Assembly: GCA_900318065.1 (NCBI GenBank)
Contig: ONIY01000018.1
Location: 1 to 35,639 of the forward strand
Length of the DNA stretch: 35,639 bases
Reading direction: 5' to 3'
From: an uncultured Prevotellaceae bacterium
GTDB lineage: Bacteria; Bacteroidota; Bacteroidia; Bacteroidales; Muribaculaceae
Under the pieces are notes generated by a model. The model was not told the origin of the DNA. It searched no databases and was given only the letters and a program-made list of their open reading frames with translations. A program made the position numbers and the translations under genes. Shown in pieces: positions 3,388 through 31,101 of this stretch. Position 1 is the stretch's first letter; each line of letters begins with the position of its first letter.

Positions 3388-3948
3388 ATGATTTACAAGT
3401 TTCTGATAGGTTCAGAAGAATCAGAGAATTTCAAATTAGAGATTGCTATTGATAGTTCCGATACTTTTTTGCGACTGCGAAACACAATTCTTGAGGCTGC
3501 AGGCTATGACAAGAGCCAGATGGACTCTTTCATCATTTGCGACGAAGATTGGGGCAAAGAGAAAGAAATCACTTATTATGATATGGACTCCGATTCCGAC
3601 GAAGACATCTGGCTGATGGAAGACACTCCGCTCGATGAACTTCTCGACGACGAGGGACAAAAACTCAAGTTTGTTTTTGATTATTTGAGCGACCGTTATT
3701 TCTACATGATTCTCAAGGAGACCGTTCCTGGAAAGAATCTGCACGACCCATTGTGCCAGCGCAAGGAAGGCAAGGCTCCACAAGAGGTGCTTGCCAATGA
3801 GTTCTTTGCCGATGCCAAGACATTGAAAATCGACACTAATATCGAGGAAATGGAAGAGTTCTATGGTGACGAGGAGTTCAATGAGGAAGAACTTGCCGAG
3901 CTCAACGACGAGTTCCGTGAAGAGCAAGGTGGAGGCGACGACCTCTAA
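3388..3948 (+). CDS. IS1096 passenger TnpR-like / plasmid pRiA4b ORF-3-like protein
   Basis: A 186-residue, very acidic protein. The N-terminal half (IYKFLIGSEE, then DTFLRLRNTILEAAGYD, then LKFVFDYLSDRYFYMILKE) resembles the pRiA4b ORF-3-like fold, a family first noted on plasmids and insertion sequences but common as single-copy genes in Bacteroidetes. The last 40 residues are mostly Glu and Asp with a GGGDD end. No catalytic residues are obvious and no function is established. No transposase or IS ends lie nearby, so I treat it as a resident chromosomal gene. TAATTTCG at 3343-3350 with TTG at 3322-3324 could be a weak promoter. A strong terminator follows at 3978-4013. Confidence 0.65.
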   Translation: MIYKFLIGSEESENFKLEIAIDSSDTFLRLRNTILEAAGYDKSQMDSFIICDEDWGKEKEITYYDMDSDSDEDIWLMEDTPLDELLDDEGQKLKFVFDYLSDRYFYMILKETVPGKNLHDPLCQRKEGKAPQEVLANEFFADAKTLKIDTNIEEMEEFYGDEEFNEEELAELNDEFREEQGGGDDL

Positions 3949-4057: not shown

Positions 4058-5125
4058 TTACTTCTCCACCTTGAATTTGTAGATGGTGCGAGTGTAGTAG
4101 GTCTCGCCGGGACGTAGCTCACACGATGGATACTCGGGGCAGTTGGGGGTGTTGGGGTAGTGCTGGGTCTCAAAAGCCACAGCCGAGCGTGCTGGATAGC
4201 CCACGCCAAACTTCCCTTTCAGGTTCTCGTCGAGGAAGTTGCCGGTATACATTTGTGCGGCAGGCTCGGTAGTGTATACTTCCATCACAATGCCAGTCAC
4301 TGGCGACATCACGCTCAGGGCAACATTGCTGATGTCGCCTGGGTGGTTGAGGGCAAAACTGTGGTCATAGCCATTGCCGTTCTTCAGTTGCTCGTTGTCG
4401 GCATTGATGTCCTGGCCAATGGGTTTGGCGGTGCGGAAGTCGAAGGGTGTGCCGGTGACATCCATGAAAGATCCATCGGTAATCAATGTCTCGTCGGCTG
4501 GAGTGATTCGATCGGCGTCCACTCTTAGCACATGGTTGTGAATGCTTGATGCCAGGTCGCCGTTGAGGTTGAAATAGGAGTGATTGGTGAGATTGACGAT
4601 GGTGGGTTTGTCGGTGGTGGCACTGTACTCAATGTCGATGGCGTTGTCATCGGTGAGGGTATACACCACTTTCACGTTGAGTGTTCCAGGAAATCCCTCG
4701 GTGCCGTCGGGGTCGACGAGTGTGAGCTCCAGGCGGTTGCCGTCTTGCTTGGCGTCCCACACCTTCTTGTCATATCCCTTGAGACCACCATGCAGGCAGT
4801 GCCCGTTATTGTTGATGGGAAGGGTGTATTCATTGCCGTCGAGAGTGAAACGTCCGTTGCCAATGCGGTTGCCGTAACGGCCTATCAAAGCGCCAAAGTT
4901 GCCGTCGTCGGCAAGGTAGTTGACAATGCTGTCGTGTCCTAGTTCCACATCGGTGAGCTTGCCTTCGCGGTCAGGAACCATGAGGCTCACGATCCTGCCA
5001 CCATAGTTGGTGATGCAGGCTTCCACACCGTTAGAGTTGGTAAGGACAAAGAGCTTAACATCTTTCTCATCGACTGTAGCCTCAAAATCTTGAGGATTGA
5101 GTCCCGATTTCGTTAATTTTGTCAT
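4058..5125 (-). CDS. galM: Galactose mutarotase (aldose 1-epimerase)
   Basis: A 355-residue aldose 1-epimerase that interconverts alpha and beta anomers of galactose and glucose, feeding galactokinase in the Leloir pathway. Visible signatures are GRYGNRIG (82-90), HGG at 112-114, the catalytic acid His182 in NHSYFNL, PFDFR at 227-231, YDHSF near 254, and the catalytic base Glu319 in AFETQHYPN. No signal peptide is seen, so it is probably cytosolic, unlike the periplasmic forms some Bacteroidetes carry. No other Leloir genes are adjacent. A -7 box lies at 5194-5201, giving a leader of about 60 bases. Confidence 0.93.
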   Translation of the reverse strand: MTKLTKSGLNPQDFEATVDEKDVKLFVLTNSNGVEACITNYGGRIVSLMVPDREGKLTDVELGHDSIVNYLADDGNFGALIGRYGNRIGNGRFTLDGNEYTLPINNNGHCLHGGLKGYDKKVWDAKQDGNRLELTLVDPDGTEGFPGTLNVKVVYTLTDDNAIDIEYSATTDKPTIVNLTNHSYFNLNGDLASSIHNHVLRVDADRITPADETLITDGSFMDVTGTPFDFRTAKPIGQDINADNEQLKNGNGYDHSFALNHPGDISNVALSVMSPVTGIVMEVYTTEPAAQMYTGNFLDENLKGKFGVGYPARSAVAFETQHYPNTPNCPEYPSCELRPGETYYTRTIYKFKVEK

Positions 5126-25397: not shown

Positions 25398-25428
25398 TTG
25401 CGTAATTGACTAATTTTTTGTACCTTTG
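25398..25428 (+). promoter_or_regulatory. Bacteroidetes promoter for the EamA gene
   Basis: TTG (25398-25400), a 20-base spacer, then TACCTTTG (25421-25428). This supports translation from the ATG at 25445 rather than from upstream TTG codons. Confidence 0.6.
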
Positions 25429-25444
25429 CACCCTCAAAAAAATT

Positions 25445-26320
25445 ATGTGGATTCTGCTTGCAGTGATATCGTCGATTAGCCTGGGGTTCTTTGATGTATT
25501 CAAGAAACTCTCGCTTGAGCACAACAATGTGTTTGCTGTGCTGCTGGTCAACGTGTTGCTGTGCACCATAATGGTGAGTCCGCTCACTGTGATGTCGCTC
25601 ATGGGCAAGCCCGAGTGCTCGTTGTCGATGCAAGGGCACATGCTCATTGCCATCAAGTCGCTGGTGGTCTCCATCTCATGGCTTCTGGGTTTTGCTTCGA
25701 TGAAGCACTTGCCATTGAGCATTAGTGGCTCTATCAATGCCGTGCGACCCATCCTGGTGCTGGTGGGTGCCATTGCTCTCTTTGGAGAGAGGCCCAACAA
25801 CACGCAATGGGCTGGTATCATCCTGGGCTTTGTGTCGCTGTTGTGGGTGGGCTTCATTGGCCGTCGCGAGAAGACCGAGAAGGGCCTGGGCAAGTGGCTG
25901 TTGTTTGGCATCCTCTCGATAGTGCTGTGGGCAGCCAGCGGACTCTATGACAAGTGGCTCATTGCAGGCGGCTACACTCCTCTGGCTATCGAGGCGTGGT
26001 ATCCGTTCTATCAAACGGTTATAATGATCATCATCGTTGCCATTGAACATTACTACAAGAAGAGCATCGACCGCTTCCACTGGAACAAGAACATCATAGT
26101 GATATCGGTGTTTATTATCATCGCCGACCTTGCCTATTTCTACAGCCTCACCTATCCCGAGTCGCTTGTGTCGGTTGCGTCAATGATTCGCCGAGGCAGT
26201 GCCCTTGTGGCATTCTTCTATGGTGCTATAGTATTGAAAGAAAAGAACCTGCGACTCAAGATTATCGACCAGATAATCCTCATCGCAGGTATGGCATTAA
26301 TCATTATAGGAAGCCTGTAG
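25445..26320 (+). CDS. EamA/DMT-superfamily transporter (10 TM)
   Basis: A 291-residue inner-membrane protein with about ten TM helices in two EamA repeats. Landmarks are the first helix WILLAVISSISLGFFDVFKK, LPLSISGSINAVRPILVLVGAIALFGERP at the end of repeat one, and MIRRGSALVAFFYGAIVLKEKNLR at the end of repeat two. The family moves small metabolites across the inner membrane; the substrate cannot be deduced. It differs enough from 1622-2515 to be a paralogue with a separate substrate. It has its own promoter and no operon partner. Confidence 0.85.
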   Translation: MWILLAVISSISLGFFDVFKKLSLEHNNVFAVLLVNVLLCTIMVSPLTVMSLMGKPECSLSMQGHMLIAIKSLVVSISWLLGFASMKHLPLSISGSINAVRPILVLVGAIALFGERPNNTQWAGIILGFVSLLWVGFIGRREKTEKGLGKWLLFGILSIVLWAASGLYDKWLIAGGYTPLAIEAWYPFYQTVIMIIIVAIEHYYKKSIDRFHWNKNIIVISVFIIIADLAYFYSLTYPESLVSVASMIRRGSALVAFFYGAIVLKEKNLRLKIIDQIILIAGMALIIIGSL

Positions 26321-26321
26321 A

Positions 26322-26523
26322 TTAAGTGTTAAGTTATAAGTGTTAAGTGTTAAGTAGCGCCTGCGGCGCGAGGGTCGAGGATCGGGAATGGAAGATCGGT
26401 GAGGGAATTGTAGGGACACAGCCTGCTGCATTGGAAACGTGGATTAAGAGTTAAGTGAAAAGTGAAAAGCAGGCTGCAAAAACCAAAGCCGCACGCGGCT
26501 ACACTTAAAACTTTACACTTAAA
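26322..26523. repeat. Intergenic simple repeats bordering the island
   Basis: 26322-26355 holds TTAAGTG repeats; 26348-26367 matches 2517-2536 at 19 of 20 positions. An inverted pair CAGCCTGC/GCAGGCTG spans about 26420-26475, and AGCCGC-AC-GCGGCT forms a small hairpin near 26487-26500. I see no gene. The last six bases, CTTAAA at 26518-26523, recur just outside the right end of the island. Confidence 0.5.
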
Positions 26524-26554
26524 TTTAGGTAATTATATAGGGTTTGACCCCGAA
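26524..26554 (+). repeat. Island repeat copy 1 (left end)
   Basis: 31-bp repeat. Its GTTTGACC (26542-26549) also pairs with GGTCAAAC (26560-26567) to form an 8-bp stem, extendable to 10 with a wobble, followed by ATATTTTTT. This can act as a terminator on the plus strand. Confidence 0.65.
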
Positions 26555-26579
26555 AAAGTGGTCAAACTCATATTTTTTG

Positions 26580-27014
26580 TTAAATCCGATTAATTGATTT
26601 ATAGAAAATGCCGTTTTTTACAATAAAATCCTTGAATAATTTTTTCAATTCAATTAGTTCAATATCGTCCTCGGCAAACCAAACACAATCAAAATACGGT
26701 TTCCCATCTTCACACCACTCTTTAATGTAGAACATTGCTTCATCAAACATCTTATCATATAATCCCAAATAGGGCATATTCCATCCTTGAATTTTGATTT
26801 TCTTAACCTCAAAGTGTAAAATTCTACAAGCGTTTGAGATGGATTTAAGGAATGGGCAATCTTCTTTTTTTAGTGCTATAAAAGCAATTAATTCATCATT
26901 CTGAACTGTTCTATATGAAAAAGACAGTCGTTTTAATGATTCTTTATATGCATCTTCCTCCAATATTTCTGTTGGTGGATATTCATTGAAAAAGTAGGTT
27001 TTTATTTCTTCCAT
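26580..27014 (-). CDS. Unknown island protein 1
   Basis: A 144-residue, probably cytosolic protein with no signal or TM segment. I recognise no family. Aromatic and acidic residues are frequent. The C-terminal part (about residues 88-136, from FDEAMFYIKEWCEDGK onward, with a following acidic helix and LKKLF) parallels the C-terminus of the neighbouring 27105-27683 product. The TAATTTTG box at 27019-27026 lies only a few bases before the ATG, so the transcript may be nearly leaderless. Repeat copy 1 lies 25 bases after the stop and copy 2 lies upstream. Codon use is AT-rich, unlike the core genes, which supports acquisition by transfer. Confidence 0.65.
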   Translation of the reverse strand: MEEIKTYFFNEYPPTEILEEDAYKESLKRLSFSYRTVQNDELIAFIALKKEDCPFLKSISNACRILHFEVKKIKIQGWNMPYLGLYDKMFDEAMFYIKEWCEDGKPYFDCVWFAEDDIELIELKKLFKDFIVKNGIFYKSINRI

Positions 27015-27062
27015 GCCGCAAAATTAGTCATTTTTATGTAATTGCGATAATTATATAATAAA

Positions 27063-27090
27063 AGGGAATTATATCAGGTTTGACCCCGAA
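27063..27090 (+). repeat. Island repeat copy 2 (internal)
   Basis: Matches copy 1 over AGG-AATTATAT and GGTTTGACCCCGAA, same orientation, 14 bases after the stop of 27105-27683. It lacks the partner sequence for the hairpin seen at copy 1. Confidence 0.6.
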
Positions 27091-27104
27091 TGAAATTATC
27101 AAGA

Positions 27105-27683
27105 TTAATTTTCAAGGAGTAATTTTTGAATCCTTTCTTGTGCCATTTCTTCGGTTGTAAAACATTCATTCTTCATAGGTTTATACCCACCATCAATCCA
27201 TTCTTCTATTCGGAAACACATTTCATTTATTTTTGTTATAGTATATTTGTCAAAGACTTGTGGAATGTCCACAACCCCTAAATCAAACGATGGTTGTGTG
27301 TTATTCAATGAATTTCGTGCCCAACATAATTGAATAGATTTGATGTCAGAAACGTTAGTAGCATCCTTATTCCTAAGTAATGCGCAGAGAACAGAGAAAT
27401 CTGTAACCCTTCCTTGATATAAAATTCTGGTTCCAAAGAAATAATCAAATGTTGATAACACTTTAAGATTCTCGTTTAGAGGAATTGTTGAAGTAAAGAT
27501 ATAATGTGTTATATCCCAAATATCGTTTCCTTCCTTAGTAATCAGAATAATACCATTGTGTTTTTTGAAATCATTAAATACACAATCAACAAGTTCCATA
27601 GAGCATATTGAGAGCAGTTTTCTGTAAGTGGTTTCCTTTAAACTTAAATTTCCCATAAATAAACTATTATGAATATGTTTCAT
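27105..27683 (-). CDS. Unknown island protein 2
   Basis: A 192-residue, probably cytosolic protein. No family recognised. The central part is beta-rich (IILITKEGNDIWDITHYIF, LSTFDYFFGTRILYQG). The C-terminus, NEMCFRIEEWIDGGYKP followed by FTTEEMAQERIQKLL, parallels the end of 26580-27014, so the two may share a small domain of about 45 residues. The start at 27683 has a matching promoter (TTTG at 27722-27725, 20-base spacer, TATCTTTG at 27694-27701), giving a very short leader. Repeat copy 2 follows the stop. It diverges from 27730-27972. Confidence 0.65.
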   Translation of the reverse strand: MKHIHNSLFMGNLSLKETTYRKLLSICSMELVDCVFNDFKKHNGIILITKEGNDIWDITHYIFTSTIPLNENLKVLSTFDYFFGTRILYQGRVTDFSVLCALLRNKDATNVSDIKSIQLCWARNSLNNTQPSFDLGVVDIPQVFDKYTITKINEMCFRIEEWIDGGYKPMKNECFTTEEMAQERIQKLLLEN

Positions 27684-27693
27684 TACTAAAACA

Positions 27694-27725
27694 CAAAGAT
27701 AATGATATTTATATAAAAAACCAAA
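27694..27725 (-). promoter_or_regulatory. Bacteroidetes promoter for unknown protein 2
   Basis: On the minus strand TTTG (27725-27722), 20 bases, then TATCTTTG (27701-27694). Both elements and the spacing fit the consensus. Confidence 0.65.
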
Positions 27726-27729
27726 TATT

Positions 27730-27972
27730 ATGAGGAATATTTATAACATTATAAGGCAAAGTGTCAAAGAAGCGTTAAATGAATCTCAAAACCCAATAAA
27801 ACCAATTGATATCTATTTAGATTTAATGCGTTATTTTGAAAGTCAAAGTAGATTCCTAAAACAAAACTATCGAAATAAGTTAAATAAGAAAGAGCCAATC
27901 ACTTGGGAAGAAATTGACCAATTAAATGATAAGATTCATTACGATTTAGACACCATAATGACACGAAAATAA
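27730..27972 (+). CDS. Small unknown protein with an N-terminal amphipathic tag
   Basis: An 80-residue helical, charged protein. The start MRNIYNIIRQSVKEALNES resembles the N-terminus of the next gene (MRYRLTENKLRGMIHEAVKGMLKE): a short segment of the pattern I-R-(E/Q)-x-V-K-x-x-L-x-E. Similar leaders occur on many hypothetical proteins of gut Bacteroidales and their phages. The rest is predicted helical (FESQSRFLKQNYRNKLNKKE) with no known domain. Cytosolic. It is followed after 25 bases by 27998-28441 and is probably co-transcribed with it. Confidence 0.6.
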   Translation: MRNIYNIIRQSVKEALNESQNPIKPIDIYLDLMRYFESQSRFLKQNYRNKLNKKEPITWEEIDQLNDKIHYDLDTIMTRK

Positions 27973-27997
27973 TACAGATATAAAAACAGAGAATATT

Positions 27998-28441
27998 ATG
28001 AGATACAGACTTACAGAAAATAAACTCCGTGGAATGATACATGAGGCAGTGAAAGGGATGTTAAAAGAAACAAATGGCAATGATACAATTGATAGGGAAT
28101 GGTATTCCCAAAAAGGTGCTATTTTAGATGACGAAGAAGAATATATTGCACGATATTGTGATATTTTTGAGAAAGCCTATGATTCTGCTCGTAAATTAGA
28201 CAATTTTTTAAATAAGACAGTAAATGTATATGACTTTGAATATCTTCGTTACCAAGTAAGAAATAATAAAGGTAGTGATATTCAAAATGCCATATATGAA
28301 GCACTTGATGCCGCAAATAATGCAGAGAGTAAACTTCATAATGCCCTTTATATGATGAAGGAATATCAAGCACAAGATGGTTACGGTGTTTATGATGGTG
28401 GTGAAGGCTTCACTGATTATAGTGGAGGCACAGACTATTAA
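27998..28441 (+). CDS. Unknown protein with the same N-terminal tag
   Basis: A 147-residue acidic protein. Residues 1-24 form the tag (LTENKLRGMIHEAVKGMLKE). The middle is helical (CDIFEKAYDSARKLDNFLNK and SDIQNAIYEALDAANNAESKLHNALYMMKEYQ). The last 20 residues are Gly/Tyr/Asp-rich (GYGVYDGGEGFTDYSGGTDY), probably disordered. No family recognised. Its stop overlaps the stop of the oppositely oriented transposase by 4 bases. A 14-bp sequence in its leader (27967-27980) recurs inverted before the transposase start, so it may be a passenger gene of that insertion sequence. Confidence 0.6.
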   Translation: MRYRLTENKLRGMIHEAVKGMLKETNGNDTIDREWYSQKGAILDDEEEYIARYCDIFEKAYDSARKLDNFLNKTVNVYDFEYLRYQVRNNKGSDIQNAIYEALDAANNAESKLHNALYMMKEYQAQDGYGVYDGGEGFTDYSGGTDY

Positions 28442-29421
28442 GCCACCTTGCATAGTTTCAGTTCACTCCAAGTGACAATCAGTCCAACGGACTTGGCAAA
28501 CATATCATAGAAGCGTTCACTCTCGGACACTTTTCTTGTGTTCCAACGGTACACAGCCTCATTGATGTACCCTTGCAAATGCTCATCACTGACATCGTGA
28601 TAACAGCCTGTAATCATTCTGCGGAAATGGCTCCAGAAACCCTCAATGGAGTTGGTGAACATATCACCATTGACATATTCCTCATCCCCGTGACGTACAA
28701 CACCGTGGCTGTAACCAATCTTCTCCAAGCCACTGTATGCGTTCAACTCGTCAGTAATGACAAGTGAACCCTCGGCAACAAACTGCTGAATAATGGGCTG
28801 TAATGTAGCCTTGTCGGTCTTATCCACAACGAATGCGTGAACGTATGACATAGGTTCTTCCTCACCCTTGTCATTCTTAATGGTGCTGCGCTCAATCATA
28901 CCGAACACCGGAGTTTTGGTCAGCGTTGAGCGACCTTGCGTGTGTGGAGTGCGCATTGACTTGTGTTTCCATTTCTCCTTGCCACCGATATACACCTCAT
29001 CGCACTCAACCTTGCCTTCAAAAGCCTCTGCATCACTCTGTGGGTAGAGCAGACGTATCTTTTGGAGCATGTACCAAGCGGTGGTCTGTGTGACGTGGAT
29101 GTCACGAGCCAACTGACAAGAGGAAACACCCTTCTTGTGTGAGGAAATGAGATACATTGCAATGAACCACTTTACGAGTGAGAGGTTGCTGTCCTCGAAG
29201 ATAGTGCCGACCTTGCAAGAGAAGTTGCGCTTACATTGGTTGCAACGGAAATTGCCCTCCTTGCGTGTGGCGCAATGGTGTTTACCGCAATAAGGGCAAA
29301 CGATGTCTTGCTGATTACCCTTGCCCCAACGAGTCTCGATGATGGCTTGTTTGCAGGTTGCCTCGTTATTGAAATACATTGTCATTGCGATAAGGCTGTC
29401 GAACTGAGAAAAATCTATCAT
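28438..29421 (-). CDS. IS1595-family (ISXO2-like) transposase
   Basis: A 327-residue transposase. An N-terminal zinc ribbon uses Cys42, Cys45, Cys60 and Cys63 (CPYC and CNQC). An HTH-like region follows (QLARDIHVTQTTAWYMLQKIR, about 103-123). The ISXO2-type DDE-like domain shows Asp141 in VECDEVYIGG, Asp224 in VITDELNAYSG, and the third acidic region near NSIEGFWSHFRRMITG (257-271). The frame is complete, so the enzyme may be active. I could not define the outer IS ends: the stop abuts a neighbouring gene and no inverted termini with an 8-bp duplication are visible. The promoter lies at 29469-29476 with a palindrome over the start site. Confidence 0.9.
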   Translation of the reverse strand: MIDFSQFDSLIAMTMYFNNEATCKQAIIETRWGKGNQQDIVCPYCGKHHCATRKEGNFRCNQCKRNFSCKVGTIFEDSNLSLVKWFIAMYLISSHKKGVSSCQLARDIHVTQTTAWYMLQKIRLLYPQSDAEAFEGKVECDEVYIGGKEKWKHKSMRTPHTQGRSTLTKTPVFGMIERSTIKNDKGEEEPMSYVHAFVVDKTDKATLQPIIQQFVAEGSLVITDELNAYSGLEKIGYSHGVVRHGDEEYVNGDMFTNSIEGFWSHFRRMITGCYHDVSDEHLQGYINEAVYRWNTRKVSESERFYDMFAKSVGLIVTWSELKLCKVA

Positions 29422-29453
29422 AATATAACCGTTTTATCTGTATTATTTCCTTC

Positions 29454-29476
29454 TGTATTAATGTAATACAAAGTTA
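29454..29476 (-). promoter_or_regulatory. Transposase promoter with overlapping palindrome
   Basis: -7 box TAACTTTG (29476-29469, minus strand) and a perfect 7-bp inverted repeat TGTATTA-ATG-TAATACA at 29454-29470 that covers the expected start site. A wider pair CCGTTTTA/TAAAACGG (29429-29436 and 29490-29497) encloses it. This is compatible with a repressor or autoregulation. Confidence 0.5.
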
Positions 29477-29696
29477 GTAAAAAGTCCAGTAAAACGGGAA
29501 TATTATTAGTTAACTAAAGCTAGACAAAAGCTAAAGATTCCTAGAACGTTAATAAACAAGAAAAATCAACGACATTGAATGTGCTGTCAGTGATTTTATT
29601 TAATTATGTGCTGCTCAGGGACTAATGACCGTGAGGTGTATTCCTCACACATAATATGGGATTAGTTCATCAAAAGAGCAGAAAGGAGATTGTTTC

Positions 29697-29777
29697 ATGA
29701 AAACAAGAGTTTTCACAGAACAATGGCACATTGAAGTCCTTGACTTGATGCGTCGTTTAGAGAATATTAAACTCTAA
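29697..29777 (+). CDS. Possible 26-residue small protein
   Basis: A short frame, MKTRVFTEQWHIEVLDLMRR and then LENIKL, preceded by AAAGGAG 8 bases before the ATG. A Shine-Dalgarno sequence is rare in this window, which makes translation plausible and suggests phage or plasmid ancestry. The peptide is an amphipathic helix candidate. It could be a leader peptide, a toxin-like peptide or chance. A terminator-like hairpin follows at 29837-29863. Confidence 0.3.
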   Translation: MKTRVFTEQWHIEVLDLMRRLENIKL

Positions 29778-29836
29778 ACTTTCTTTTGACATGGATGTGA
29801 TTACACTCACATCAAACAAAAAAACTTCCATTTTCC

Positions 29837-29863
29837 CGGTAGATAAAGGCTGCCGAGTTTTTA
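29837..29863 (+). terminator. Terminator-like hairpin after the small ORF
   Basis: CGGTAG (29837-29842) with CTGCCG (29850-29855), one wobble pair, 7-base loop, then AGTTTTTA. Short stem, so moderate support. Confidence 0.45.
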
Positions 29864-29902
29864 TATAAATATAGGCATCAGTAGAAATAATATCAACAAC
29901 AA

Positions 29903-29933
29903 TTCGGGGTCAAACCCTATATAGTTGCCTAAA
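29903..29933 (-). repeat. Island repeat copy 3 (right end, inverted)
   Basis: Inverted counterpart of 26524-26554, 29 of 31 positions. Followed directly by CTTAAA as on the left side. Confidence 0.65.
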
Positions 29934-29955
29934 CTTAAAACTTAAAACTTAACAC

Positions 29956-29992
29956 TTAACCCTTAACCCTTAACCCTTAACCCTTAACCCTT
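29956..29992. repeat. TTAACCC tandem repeat, five copies
   Basis: Five perfect 7-base units (29956-29990) plus a partial one, preceded by ACTTAAA-type repeats from 29934 and ending just before the stop codon of the HD-RpiB gene. Confidence 0.7.
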
Positions 29993-29997
29993 ATCAC

Positions 29998-31101
29998 TTA
30001 CCCCTTGACCCTTATTTTGTCGATGCGTCGCTGGTGGCGGCCGCCTTCGAATGGTGTTGAGAGGAATGTTTTCACCATTTCAATAGCTTCTTCATTGGTC
30101 ACGAAGCGTCCTGGCATGGCAAGGACGTTGGCATCGTTGTGCTGGCGAGCGAGGCTGGCGACCTCTGGGATCCAGCACAGTGCCGAGCGTATGCCCTGAT
30201 GCTTATTGAGGGTGATGTTGATGCCCTCGCCGCTGCCACACACGGCAATGCCGGGATAGCACTCTCCGCTCTCAACGGCAATGGCGCAAGGGTGGGCAAA
30301 GTCGGGGTAGTCGCAGCTTTCCTCGCTGTAGGTGCCAAAGTCTTTATACTCAATGTTGTTCTCCTTGAGGTATTCAATCACTGCTTGCTTGGTGGCAAAT
30401 CCCGCATGGTCGCTGCACAGTGCCACGGGAATGCCTGGTTTTAAGATTGTTGTCATATTCTCTTGTTGTGTTAGTTTATCATAAATTTCGTCAAACTTGC
30501 GTCTCAAAGCCTCGGGCTGGTGAAGCAGTTTCCTGAACTCCTGTAGCCGCTTGGCATTGCTCGACTCGGGAATCCACAGCTTCAGGTAGCCTCCCTCGTC
30601 ATATTTCTCGGCCATGTGCTCGAGCAGGCGCTGGTAGTTCTCTTCCTTGCTCAGGCCAGGGTAGTGCTTGAACGAGAACTGTATCGTGCGTCTGATGATA
30701 GTGTCGCCATCGATTTGGCGGTCGGCTTCGGCAACGATGCGTCCGTAGATGCTGCGCGGGTCATGGTCGCTCGAGGCGCGGTGGTCCTCGGCGGCCTGGG
30801 CTATGGTCTCGATTTCTTGGGGAGTGAACCACTGCGTTAGTCGCTTGTCTTCACGCACGATGCGCGCGCTCTCGATGTGATGCACCTTGCGGCCCACTTC
30901 CATTCCCAGGTCGTGATAGGCAGCAGCCACCAGGAGCATGTCGCGCCGCACGGTGGGGTAGTACTGAGCAAGATTTTGGCTCTCCTGCATTACATAATGC
31001 ACATGATCACGCCTGTGGCCTGCGTCAAAGGCATCATACCGTGGCACTATCTCTTGTTCAAGAAAAGCAAGTATTTGGTTGTATCTATCGTTTGTTTCCA
31101 T
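29998..31101 (-). CDS. HD-domain phosphohydrolase fused to ribose-5-phosphate isomerase B
   Basis: A 367-residue two-domain protein. Residues 1-215 form an HD-superfamily metal phosphohydrolase: His33 (HRRDHVHYV), His63-Asp64 (YHDLG), His107 (EDHRASS) and Asp127 (AEADRQID) supply the metal ligands. Residues 216-367, starting at an in-frame Met, are a complete RpiB/LacAB sugar isomerase with SDHAGFATK, the catalytic Cys in AVCGSGEGINITLNK, and ARQHNDANVL. RpiB interconverts ribose-5-phosphate and ribulose-5-phosphate in the pentose phosphate pathway. RpiB is normally a separate protein of about 150 residues. No stop separates the halves, but the internal ATG could also give free RpiB. It overlaps the upstream lpxB gene by 17 bases, so it is co-transcribed. 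Confidence 0.85.
   Translation of the reverse strand: METNDRYNQILAFLEQEIVPRYDAFDAGHRRDHVHYVMQESQNLAQYYPTVRRDMLLVAAAYHDLGMEVGRKVHHIESARIVREDKRLTQWFTPQEIETIAQAAEDHRASSDHDPRSIYGRIVAEADRQIDGDTIIRRTIQFSFKHYPGLSKEENYQRLLEHMAEKYDEGGYLKLWIPESSNAKRLQEFRKLLHQPEALRRKFDEIYDKLTQQENMTTILKPGIPVALCSDHAGFATKQAVIEYLKENNIEYKDFGTYSEESCDYPDFAHPCAIAVESGECYPGIAVCGSGEGINITLNKHQGIRSALCWIPEVASLARQHNDANVLAMPGRFVTNEEAIEMVKTFLSTPFEGGRHQRRIDKIRVKG

What the first reader, a model, noticed from the sequence alone, without database searches (positions are those of the whole stretch)
26524..29933. AT-rich island with 31-bp inverted ends and a possible 6-bp target duplication
Both boundaries carry inverted copies of the same 31-bp sequence (29 of 31 identical) directly abutted by CTTAAA. 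The content is unlike the flanking core genes: four unknown genes, an IS1595-type transposase, a structured non-coding part and AT-rich composition. No standard element class fits: IS1595 elements make 8-bp duplications and have other ends. It may be a cargo-bearing non-autonomous element.
Basis: partly seen in the sequence, partly recalled or inferred. Interest (0 to 1): 0.75.

Follow-up and report, generated by a model that had tools for sequence, protein, structure and literature searches.

The report
Cargo transposon shared with giant phages
The island is an IS1595-family jumping element whose relatives sit both in bacterial chromosomes and in large bacterial viruses, and whose passenger genes carry a start-of-protein tag found in dozens of proteins of those viruses, which suggests that the passengers are made to be loaded into virus particles.

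Summary
The island (26528-29929, 3402 bp) is an IS1595-family element. The duplication is 8 bp (TAAATTTA/TAAACTTA, 7 of 8), not CTTAAA, which belongs to a local heptamer array. With ends chosen without looking at the duplication, 24 of 36 elements have an exact 8-bp duplication; 0 of 36 at each of 8 displaced places. In 20 of 29 related loci the flanking genes lie 35-147 bp apart without an island. New: (1) such elements sit in large T4-like phage contigs, intermixed with chromosomal copies in the transposase tree; (2) cargo is hypervariable, but 19 of 30 bounded elements encode a protein with a common tag ('RLTESDLHRIVKESVKRVLNE'-like), found in this host genome only in the island, yet up to 34 times in one phage record; (3) the tag is rich in L/I-x-E, the cut motif of T4 protease gp21, and resembles predicted cut sites of these phages' head proteins. 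Best reading: cargo loaded into phage heads by capsid-targeting sequences. That function is inferred.

The parts
26520..26527 (.). left copy of the 8-bp target duplication, TAAATTTA
   Evidence: 7 of 8 match with 29930-29937, best of 60 registers tried, next best 6 of 8
26528..26554 (+). left terminal inverted repeat (outer), begins GG
26542..26578 (+). hairpin GTTTGACC...GGTCAAAC followed by a T run, terminator-like (by eye)
   Evidence: sequence; fold
26580..27014 (-). cargo ORF, 144 aa, no family; 39% identical over 141 residues to cargo of a phage-borne element (L129)
27064..27090 (+). inner, same-orientation copy of the left end; probably the relic of an earlier left border
   Evidence: 20 of 24 match to the right end
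27105..27683 (-). cargo ORF, 192 aa, no family
27730..27972 (+). cargo ORF, 80 aa, shortened form of the tag at its N-terminus
   Evidence: (E 2.7e-6)
27998..28441 (+). cargo ORF, 147 aa, N-terminal tag MRYRLTENKLRGMIHEAVKGMLKE
   Evidence: (E 1.5e-12)
28438..29421 (-). IS1595-family transposase, 327 aa, zinc ribbon + DDE domain
   Evidence: relatives
29451..29777 (+). region beside the right end, in part conserved in other elements, with a short ORF of 26 codons (29697-29774, stop to 29777)
29903..29929 (-). right terminal inverted repeat
29930..29937 (.). right copy of the 8-bp target duplication, TAAACTTA

Best explanation
An IS1595-family transposon with exchangeable passenger genes that uses large T4-like phages of Bacteroidales as a second home. 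Shown by sequence: ends, 8-bp duplication, transposase, related copies in phage contigs and chromosomes, hypervariable cargo, and a tag shared with dozens of phage proteins. Inferred: the tag is a capsid-targeting sequence like that of T4 internal proteins. When the element sits in a phage genome, its tagged cargo would be drawn into the prohead core, trimmed at L/I-x-E by the phage's gp21-type protease, and injected with the DNA into the next cell, where it would act early (counter-defence or host takeover). That would reward the phage for carrying the element. During infection the transposase would move copies between phage and host DNA; the window holds such a chromosomal copy. Cargo would grow when one element inserts in a relative in the same orientation and the next transposition uses the outer left and inner right end; the inner left end at 27064 is the trace.
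For: Ends and duplications. Family. Empty sites. Phage homes; gp21-type protease PF03420 in 2 of 8 and 8 of 12 of the transposase-bearing records searched, including 6 of 6 of 235 kb or more; major head protein, head protease and terminase in one record and tail sheath and tube in another by PHROGs. Tree of 36 transposases: the host/phage label needs 8 changes, 5 forced by starred branches; the window groups with phage copies L128 and L131 at moderate support, 83/82. Tag: own genome 2 matches, both in the island; 1 to 34 per phage record; genus: 19 matches in 13 of 101 genomes, 13 of them inside elements with both ends and 2 beside transposase fragments. Cut sites: all 9 head proteins found carry a hydrophobic-x-E|A site at residue 60-62; T4 gp21 cuts after L/I-X-E and the gp23 propeptide has 65 residues (PMC9026906, passages). 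Cargo: 48 ORFs from 24 elements fall in 33 clusters; 4 of the 6 multi-member clusters hold host and phage elements. Stacked ends: window, and L052 with an exact outer duplication.
Against: No protein has been shown in a virion; packaging, cleavage, injection and any benefit to the phage are inferred. The profile was built from tags, so the count of L/I-x-E sites inside tags is largely circular; 57 of 342 untagged phage ORFs also have two or more. 10 of 20 phage records searched gave no protease match (all shorter than 150 kb; three carry only distant transposases). 11 of 30 bounded elements have no tag at E 1e-3. In 15 of 65 tagged phage ORFs the tag is internal. Tagged genes are spread over the phage genomes, not confined to head modules. 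The window's 192-aa and 147-aa cargo found no relative in IMG/VR. In the isolated Flavobacterium phage immuto the profile finds only weak matches (best E 0.053 in the 100 kb examined). The window's own duplication is 7 of 8 in a repetitive flank. 4 of 19 tag matches in the genus lie outside any element that I recognised. In 12 of 36 elements the best inverted pair had no exact duplication; 2 of these 12, the window among them, had one mismatch and 10 had four or more.
Confidence: 0.6

Rival explanations
1. Ordinary IS1595 transposon with passenger genes; the tag is merely what is left of phage genes that were captured, and has no role for the element.
For: IS1595-family elements with passenger genes are known (tISCpe8, MTnSag1; PMC5704250, passages). 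Tagged genes are common in these phages, up to 34 per record, so a transposon living there would often pick one up.
Against: Tag in 19 of 30 bounded elements; in 14 of the 16 distinct ones it lies in the gene that converges on the transposase, while the rest of the protein differs. Present in bounded elements of eight genomes of the genus, one genome per species.
Confidence: 0.25
2. The tag is a signal for something other than the head: a partner-binding helix, a localisation signal such as entry to a phage compartment, or a degron.
For: Tagged genes are spread over the whole phage genome, not only in the head module; some tags are internal.
Against: By eye the pattern recurs in scaffold N-termini, and it ends in the same hydrophobic-x-E motif as the predicted cut site of the major head proteins; the phages are T4-type by protease, sheath and head protein.
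Confidence: 0.2
3. Chromosomal copies are a host defence: tagged proteins made by the host enter the heads of infecting phages and spoil them.
For: Open tagged cargo genes in chromosomes; one element in a viral contig carries a GmrSD-type nuclease gene and an adenine methyltransferase gene.
Against: Some of the same cargo families sit in phage elements, where a spoiler would be selected against.
Confidence: 0.1
4. Chance inverted repeats, or a rearrangement, at a gene-poor spot.
For: Low-complexity heptamer arrays in both flanks.
Against: 24 of 36 elements with this architecture have an exact duplication at the ends, 0 of 36 at displaced places.
Confidence: 0.01

Closest known systems
IS1595 family of insertion sequences, including members with passenger genes (tISCpe8, MTnSag1)
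   Same: transposase with zinc ribbon and DDE_Tnp_IS1595, 8-bp duplication, passenger genes
   Different: cargo is hypervariable, mostly without known families, often with a phage-wide N-terminal tag; copies alternate between chromosomes and large phages
T4 internal proteins (IPI-III, Alt) with capsid-targeting sequences
   Same: N-terminal tag with L/I-x-E sites, variable bodies behind a conserved tag, phages with gp21-type protease
   Different: tag longer, with two or more sites; encoded inside a transposon; packaging not shown; no sequence relation to the T4 tag was tested
Phage hitchhikers (PICIs and other hitcher elements)
   Same: would use phage for spread between cells
   Different: sits inside the phage genome, as an insertion; no packaging or replication gene was recognised in the window element
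Composite (compound) transposons
   Same: outer ends mobilise what lies between
   Different: one transposase and a stacked second left end, not two complete flanking insertion sequences

Membership tests
IS1595 family | DDE_Tnp_IS1595 domain | tested here: met
   PF12762 E 4.9e-43; NF033547 E 1.2e-55, 188.8 bits against cut-off 75
IS1595 family | N-terminal zinc ribbon (all groups except IS1016) | tested here: met
   PF12760 E 1.6e-7, 31.6 bits against cut-off 25.4
IS1595 family | 8-bp target duplication | tested here: met
   window 7 of 8; ends chosen on the inverted match alone: 24 of 36 elements exact, 0 of 36 at each of 8 displaced places. An earlier scan that favoured low mismatch gave 29 exact of 32 pairs from 57 transposase places (25 exact after 4 duplicate loci are removed)
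IS1595 family | terminal inverted repeats (GG ends: stated for the related Merlin elements in PMC8101967; for IS1595 recalled) | tested here: met
   GG...CC, 22 of 24 matching; the scans required GG/CC, so the GG is supported by where the exact duplications fall
IS1595 family | single transposase gene | tested here: met
   one transposase ORF in the island; passengers besides
IS1595 family | transposition activity | not testable with these tools
   needs a transposition assay
IS1595 family | place within a named subgroup (ISPna2, ISH4, IS1016, IS1595, ISSod11, ISNwi, ISNha5) | not tested
   no subgroup reference sequences were compared
T4-type capsid-targeting sequence | short sequence at the N-terminus of otherwise variable proteins | tested here: met
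   50 of 65 tagged phage ORFs start the tag within 10 residues, 15 do not; cargo in 33 clusters
T4-type capsid-targeting sequence | L/I-x-E cleavage site | tested here: met
   65 of 65 tag windows hold two or more, largely by construction of the profile; 57 of 342 untagged ORFs do
T4-type capsid-targeting sequence | phage encodes a gp21-type prohead protease with matching specificity | tested here: inconclusive
   PF03420 in 10 of 20 records, 6 of 6 of 235 kb or more; specificity inferred from head proteins only (9 of 9 found)
T4-type capsid-targeting sequence | sequence relation to the T4 sequence itself | not tested
   a likeness of two cargo N-termini (L060, L061) to T4 internal proteins is recalled only
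T4-type capsid-targeting sequence | found in virions and trimmed | not testable with these tools
   needs mass spectrometry
Composite transposon | two complete insertion sequences flank the cargo | tested here: not met
   one transposase, two left ends, one right end

The most novel reading that the evidence does not exclude
A lineage of bacterial transposons whose payload is built for the inside of a virus particle: capsid-targeting tags make any suitable T4-like head load the cargo, so the element arms phages and travels in them, and chromosomal copies such as this one could also load their proteins into the heads of phages that infect the cell, delivering host-encoded proteins to the next cell.
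Probability: 0.4. Interest if true: 0.88.

Novelty: new variant of a known kind. Interest (0 to 1): 0.72.

Why it matters
T4 internal proteins are described as a diverse set of injected defence proteins behind one conserved targeting tag (PMC3012670, passages); to my knowledge how phages gain new ones is little understood. If the tag here is a targeting sequence, these transposons are a delivery route: they shuttle ready-tagged proteins between phage genomes and chromosomes and stack new cargo by sharing ends. The tag would also be a sequence handle for predicting injected proteins in large phages of Bacteroidales, and a natural means of loading proteins into their capsids.

Tried and rejected
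Rejected: a 6-bp CTTAAA duplication (the flanks are CTTAAAA-like arrays; relatives show 8 bp at GG). Rejected: a new element class (the IS1595 features tested are met). Rejected: integron-like cassettes, considered because of the same-orientation repeats at 26527 and 27063; no integrase match in the island, and the repeats are transposon ends. Rejected: structured RNA of a known family (only manA-II at E 0.25, 26.2 bits against gathering 100). Led nowhere: the AlphaFold model of the 144-aa cargo (mean pLDDT 39.6), so no fold search was run; PHROGs and PADLOC on window cargo (weak or no matches); tag against annotated phages by tblastn (no match at E 10); relatives of two window cargo proteins in IMG/VR (none); PHROGs with the tag alone (best E 0.0073). 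A DNA pattern of the ends in IMG/VR gave 16 stretches, but a partner end with an exact duplication within the stretch in only 2 of 16, so it shows that such ends occur in phage contigs and little more. Literature: 9 searches of the open-licence library, some lists capped (one search showed 12 of 115, 8 of 29); no title or abstract start that I saw named IS1595 elements in large phages or tagged cargo in transposons; others (IS1595 with jumbo phage; ISXO2, phage genome, passenger) returned 0 papers. Subscription papers, including the one that defined the IS1595 family, could not be read.

One head module that I had called cut by the record end was only outside the stretch fetched; it was fetched and its head protein has the same site.
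Full report
WHAT IS THERE. The two 31-nt inverted copies are real (29 of 31). A search that required GG at the left end and CC at the right end, with a 24-nt inverted match, and compared the next 8 bases gave for the window 26528-29929, 3402 bp, 22 of 24, with TAAATTTA / TAAACTTA. The duplication in the window alone would be weak, since both flanks are heptamer arrays; 7 of 8 is the best of 60 registers and the next best is 6 of 8. It is the relatives that fix the boundary.

RELATIVES AND THE 8-BP DUPLICATION. The transposase has relatives in 27 of 101 genomes of the genus at E 1e-3, many of them distant. Wider stretches were fetched around 14 transposase places and one place with the end motif. 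In one search, 57 transposase places (chromosomal and viral) were examined; 32 gave an end pair, 29 with an exact duplication (25 after four duplicate loci are removed). That scan kept only pairs with at most 2 mismatches, so it was repeated on the inverted match alone (best pair of 19 of 24 or more, duplicates removed): 36 elements had such a pair; the duplication was exact in 24, had one mismatch in 2 (the window and L200) and four or more in 10. At 8 displaced places it was exact in 0 of 36. So the ends and the duplication are those of the IS1595 family, whose members usually have 8-bp duplications, one transposase gene, a zinc ribbon (except IS1016) and the DDE_Tnp_IS1595 domain (PMC8101967, passages); all are met. 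Siguier et al. 2009, who defined the family, was seen only as a reference.

EMPTY SITE. The island lies between an EamA-type gene (25406-26320, named from recall) and an HD-RpiB-type fusion gene (29998-31101, likewise). Of 30 loci fetched with the first protein, one is the window's own. In 20 of the other 29 the two genes are neighbours with 35-147 bp between them: 13 with the same convergent fusion gene (40-135 bp) and 7 more distant ones with only its RpiB half beside (35-147 bp). In the other 9 the second gene was not found in the stretch held. The spacers are too divergent for a base-exact breakpoint. Some carry the same kind of AAGTGTTAAGT and ACACTTA units, so the element probably went into an array.

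PHAGE HOMES. In IMG/VR the six closest relatives (69-77% identity over the full length) lie in contigs of 16-335 kb. With an alignment of nine transposases 37 loci were found, in contigs of up to 413 kb, some of them copies of one another. In two of these records PHROGs recognises major head protein, head protease and terminase large subunit (G147), and tail sheath and tail tube (G143). I searched 20 of the records, chosen mainly by size, for the T4 gp21-type protease (PF03420): 2 of 8 and 8 of 12 have it, including all six of 235 kb or more; the 10 without it are 16-147 kb, three of them with only distant transposases. A tree of 36 transposases (22 phage, 14 host) needs 8 host/phage changes, at least 5 forced by starred branches; the shuffled mean is 11.3, so the labels are also clustered to some degree. 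The window groups with two phage copies at 83/82. The island itself is chromosomal, by its syntenic flanks.

CARGO AND TAG. Cargo differs from copy to copy: 48 ORFs of 70 aa or more from 24 elements fall in 33 clusters. Six clusters have more than one member; four of these mix host and phage elements (three duplicate loci, three distant ones and three transposase fragments were dropped first; the largest cluster is partly held together by the tag). The window's 144-aa ORF is 39% identical to cargo in a phage element (E 3e-32 as a pair). Of 34 cargo proteins given to Pfam, 5 pass a curated cut-off: two acetyltransferases in L204, a GmrSD-type nuclease and a D12 methyltransferase in L206, leucine-rich repeats in L202. 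What recurs is a tag of about 26 residues. At a domain E of 1e-3, 19 of 30 bounded elements carry it (16 of 27 without three duplicate loci); the table prints 21 because it counts two weak matches. With a profile of 15 tags the host genome has 2 matches at E 0.1, both in the island (27998, 27736), against 10, 1, 10, 3, 2, 34, 13 and 5 in eight phage records, elements included. In the genus there are 19 matches at E 1e-5 in 13 of 101 genomes: 13 inside elements with both ends, 2 beside transposase fragments at contig edges, 4 elsewhere (G124, G138, G034:C29, G048). One of the 13 (L251) is a 1385-bp element without a transposase ORF and with an exact duplication.

WHY A CAPSID TAG. T4 gp21 cuts after L/I-X-E; internal proteins enter the head by N-terminal propeptides of 10-19 residues; the gp23 propeptide has 65 residues (PMC9026906, passages). 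T-even internal proteins are described as highly diverse defence proteins with only the targeting sequence conserved (PMC3012670, passages). In the phage head modules fetched protease, scaffold and major head protein lie in that order, in some with other ORFs between. A head protein was found in 9 of 10 modules (in G462 the protease lies at the contig edge and no head protein was found); two records (G463, G464) look like near copies. All 9 have a hydrophobic residue, any residue, E and then A at residue 60-62, before a conserved NSGSF stretch: LLRE, LISE, LMTE, LIYE or LLNE. By eye, scaffold N-termini hold tag-like helices, e.g. ALLGEAVRDTYAKLLSED, and tagged ORFs lie within 1 kb of the protease in L246, L247 and L249. 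All 65 tag windows in phage loci have two or more L/I-x-E; 57 of 342 untagged ORFs do; the first number is largely built in. Two cargo proteins in other host elements (L060, L061) begin MKDIKSFITES / MKDIRTFITES, which I recall as like T4 internal proteins; this was not tested. In an isolated relative, Flavobacterium phage immuto, several proteins begin MKKSQLRQIIKEAL, MKKSQLREIIRKEL, MKKSELVKLIKEEL or MKKSQIVKAVQEVLEEM; the profile scores them weakly (E 0.053 at best), and the one paper I looked into for virion data does not mention this phage in the passages found. In 15 of 65 tagged phage ORFs the tag is not at the start of the open frame; in many of these a methionine stands at the tag, so a second start or a two-part protein is possible.

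HOW CARGO MAY ACCUMULATE. The window has a second left end at 27064, same orientation, with the 144-aa gene between the two. L052, in another species, has the same plan: outer end at 3503, inner end at 4856, one right end, and an exact duplication TAAAAATA outside the outer pair. The 8 bases before its inner end, ACAAGATA, are bases that in L053, L056 and L052 itself stand just before the start of the tagged gene, and the ORF of the outer module ends at that junction. The simplest account is insertion of one element into another at ACAAGATA, then transposition from outer left to inner right end as a unit. This is inferred from two cases.

LIMITS. No function of any window cargo protein is known. 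The structure attempt failed. Phage records are metagenomic and mostly fragments. The step from tag to packaging rests on pattern and context.

Noticed in passing
window 29697-29777 (+): A 26-codon ORF (MKTRVFTEQWHIEVLDLMRRLENIKL) with AGGAG upstream, in a region 67% identical over 319 bp to element L052; peptide relatives also in phage element L133 and, weakly (E 0.003), in host element L055.
   Followed up: partly
L159:9440-10594: The gp21-type protease gene of a 335-kb phage record seems interrupted by an intein-like insert (two PF03420 pieces; sequence; by eye).
   Followed up: no
window 29998-31101: HD-type and RpiB-type proteins in one open frame; one match covers both in 15 other genomes of the genus, while in most others listed the two halves match at separate places.
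   Followed up: no
window 26322-26355 and 29934-30003: Heptamer-like arrays (TTAAGTG, CTTAAAA, CTTAACC) around the island; similar units in spacers of some relatives.
   Followed up: no
L254:3355-4936, L255:3118-5484: Tandem ORFs with tag-like starts in two chromosomes, without the end pattern that I searched for.
   Followed up: no
L206:1655-4814: Element in a 38-kb viral contig carrying a GmrSD-type nuclease gene and a D12 adenine methyltransferase gene.
   Followed up: no
L127:9835-11034, L132:11052-12257, L256: TnpB-like ORFs (named by eye, not searched) near IS1595 elements or ends in phage contigs.
   Followed up: no
L053, L055, L056, L127, L129, L195, L199: The ORF upstream of the tag is open in frame into it for 110-205 codons, in some ending like ENKQHKTRYN before the tag's own methionine.
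   Followed up: partly
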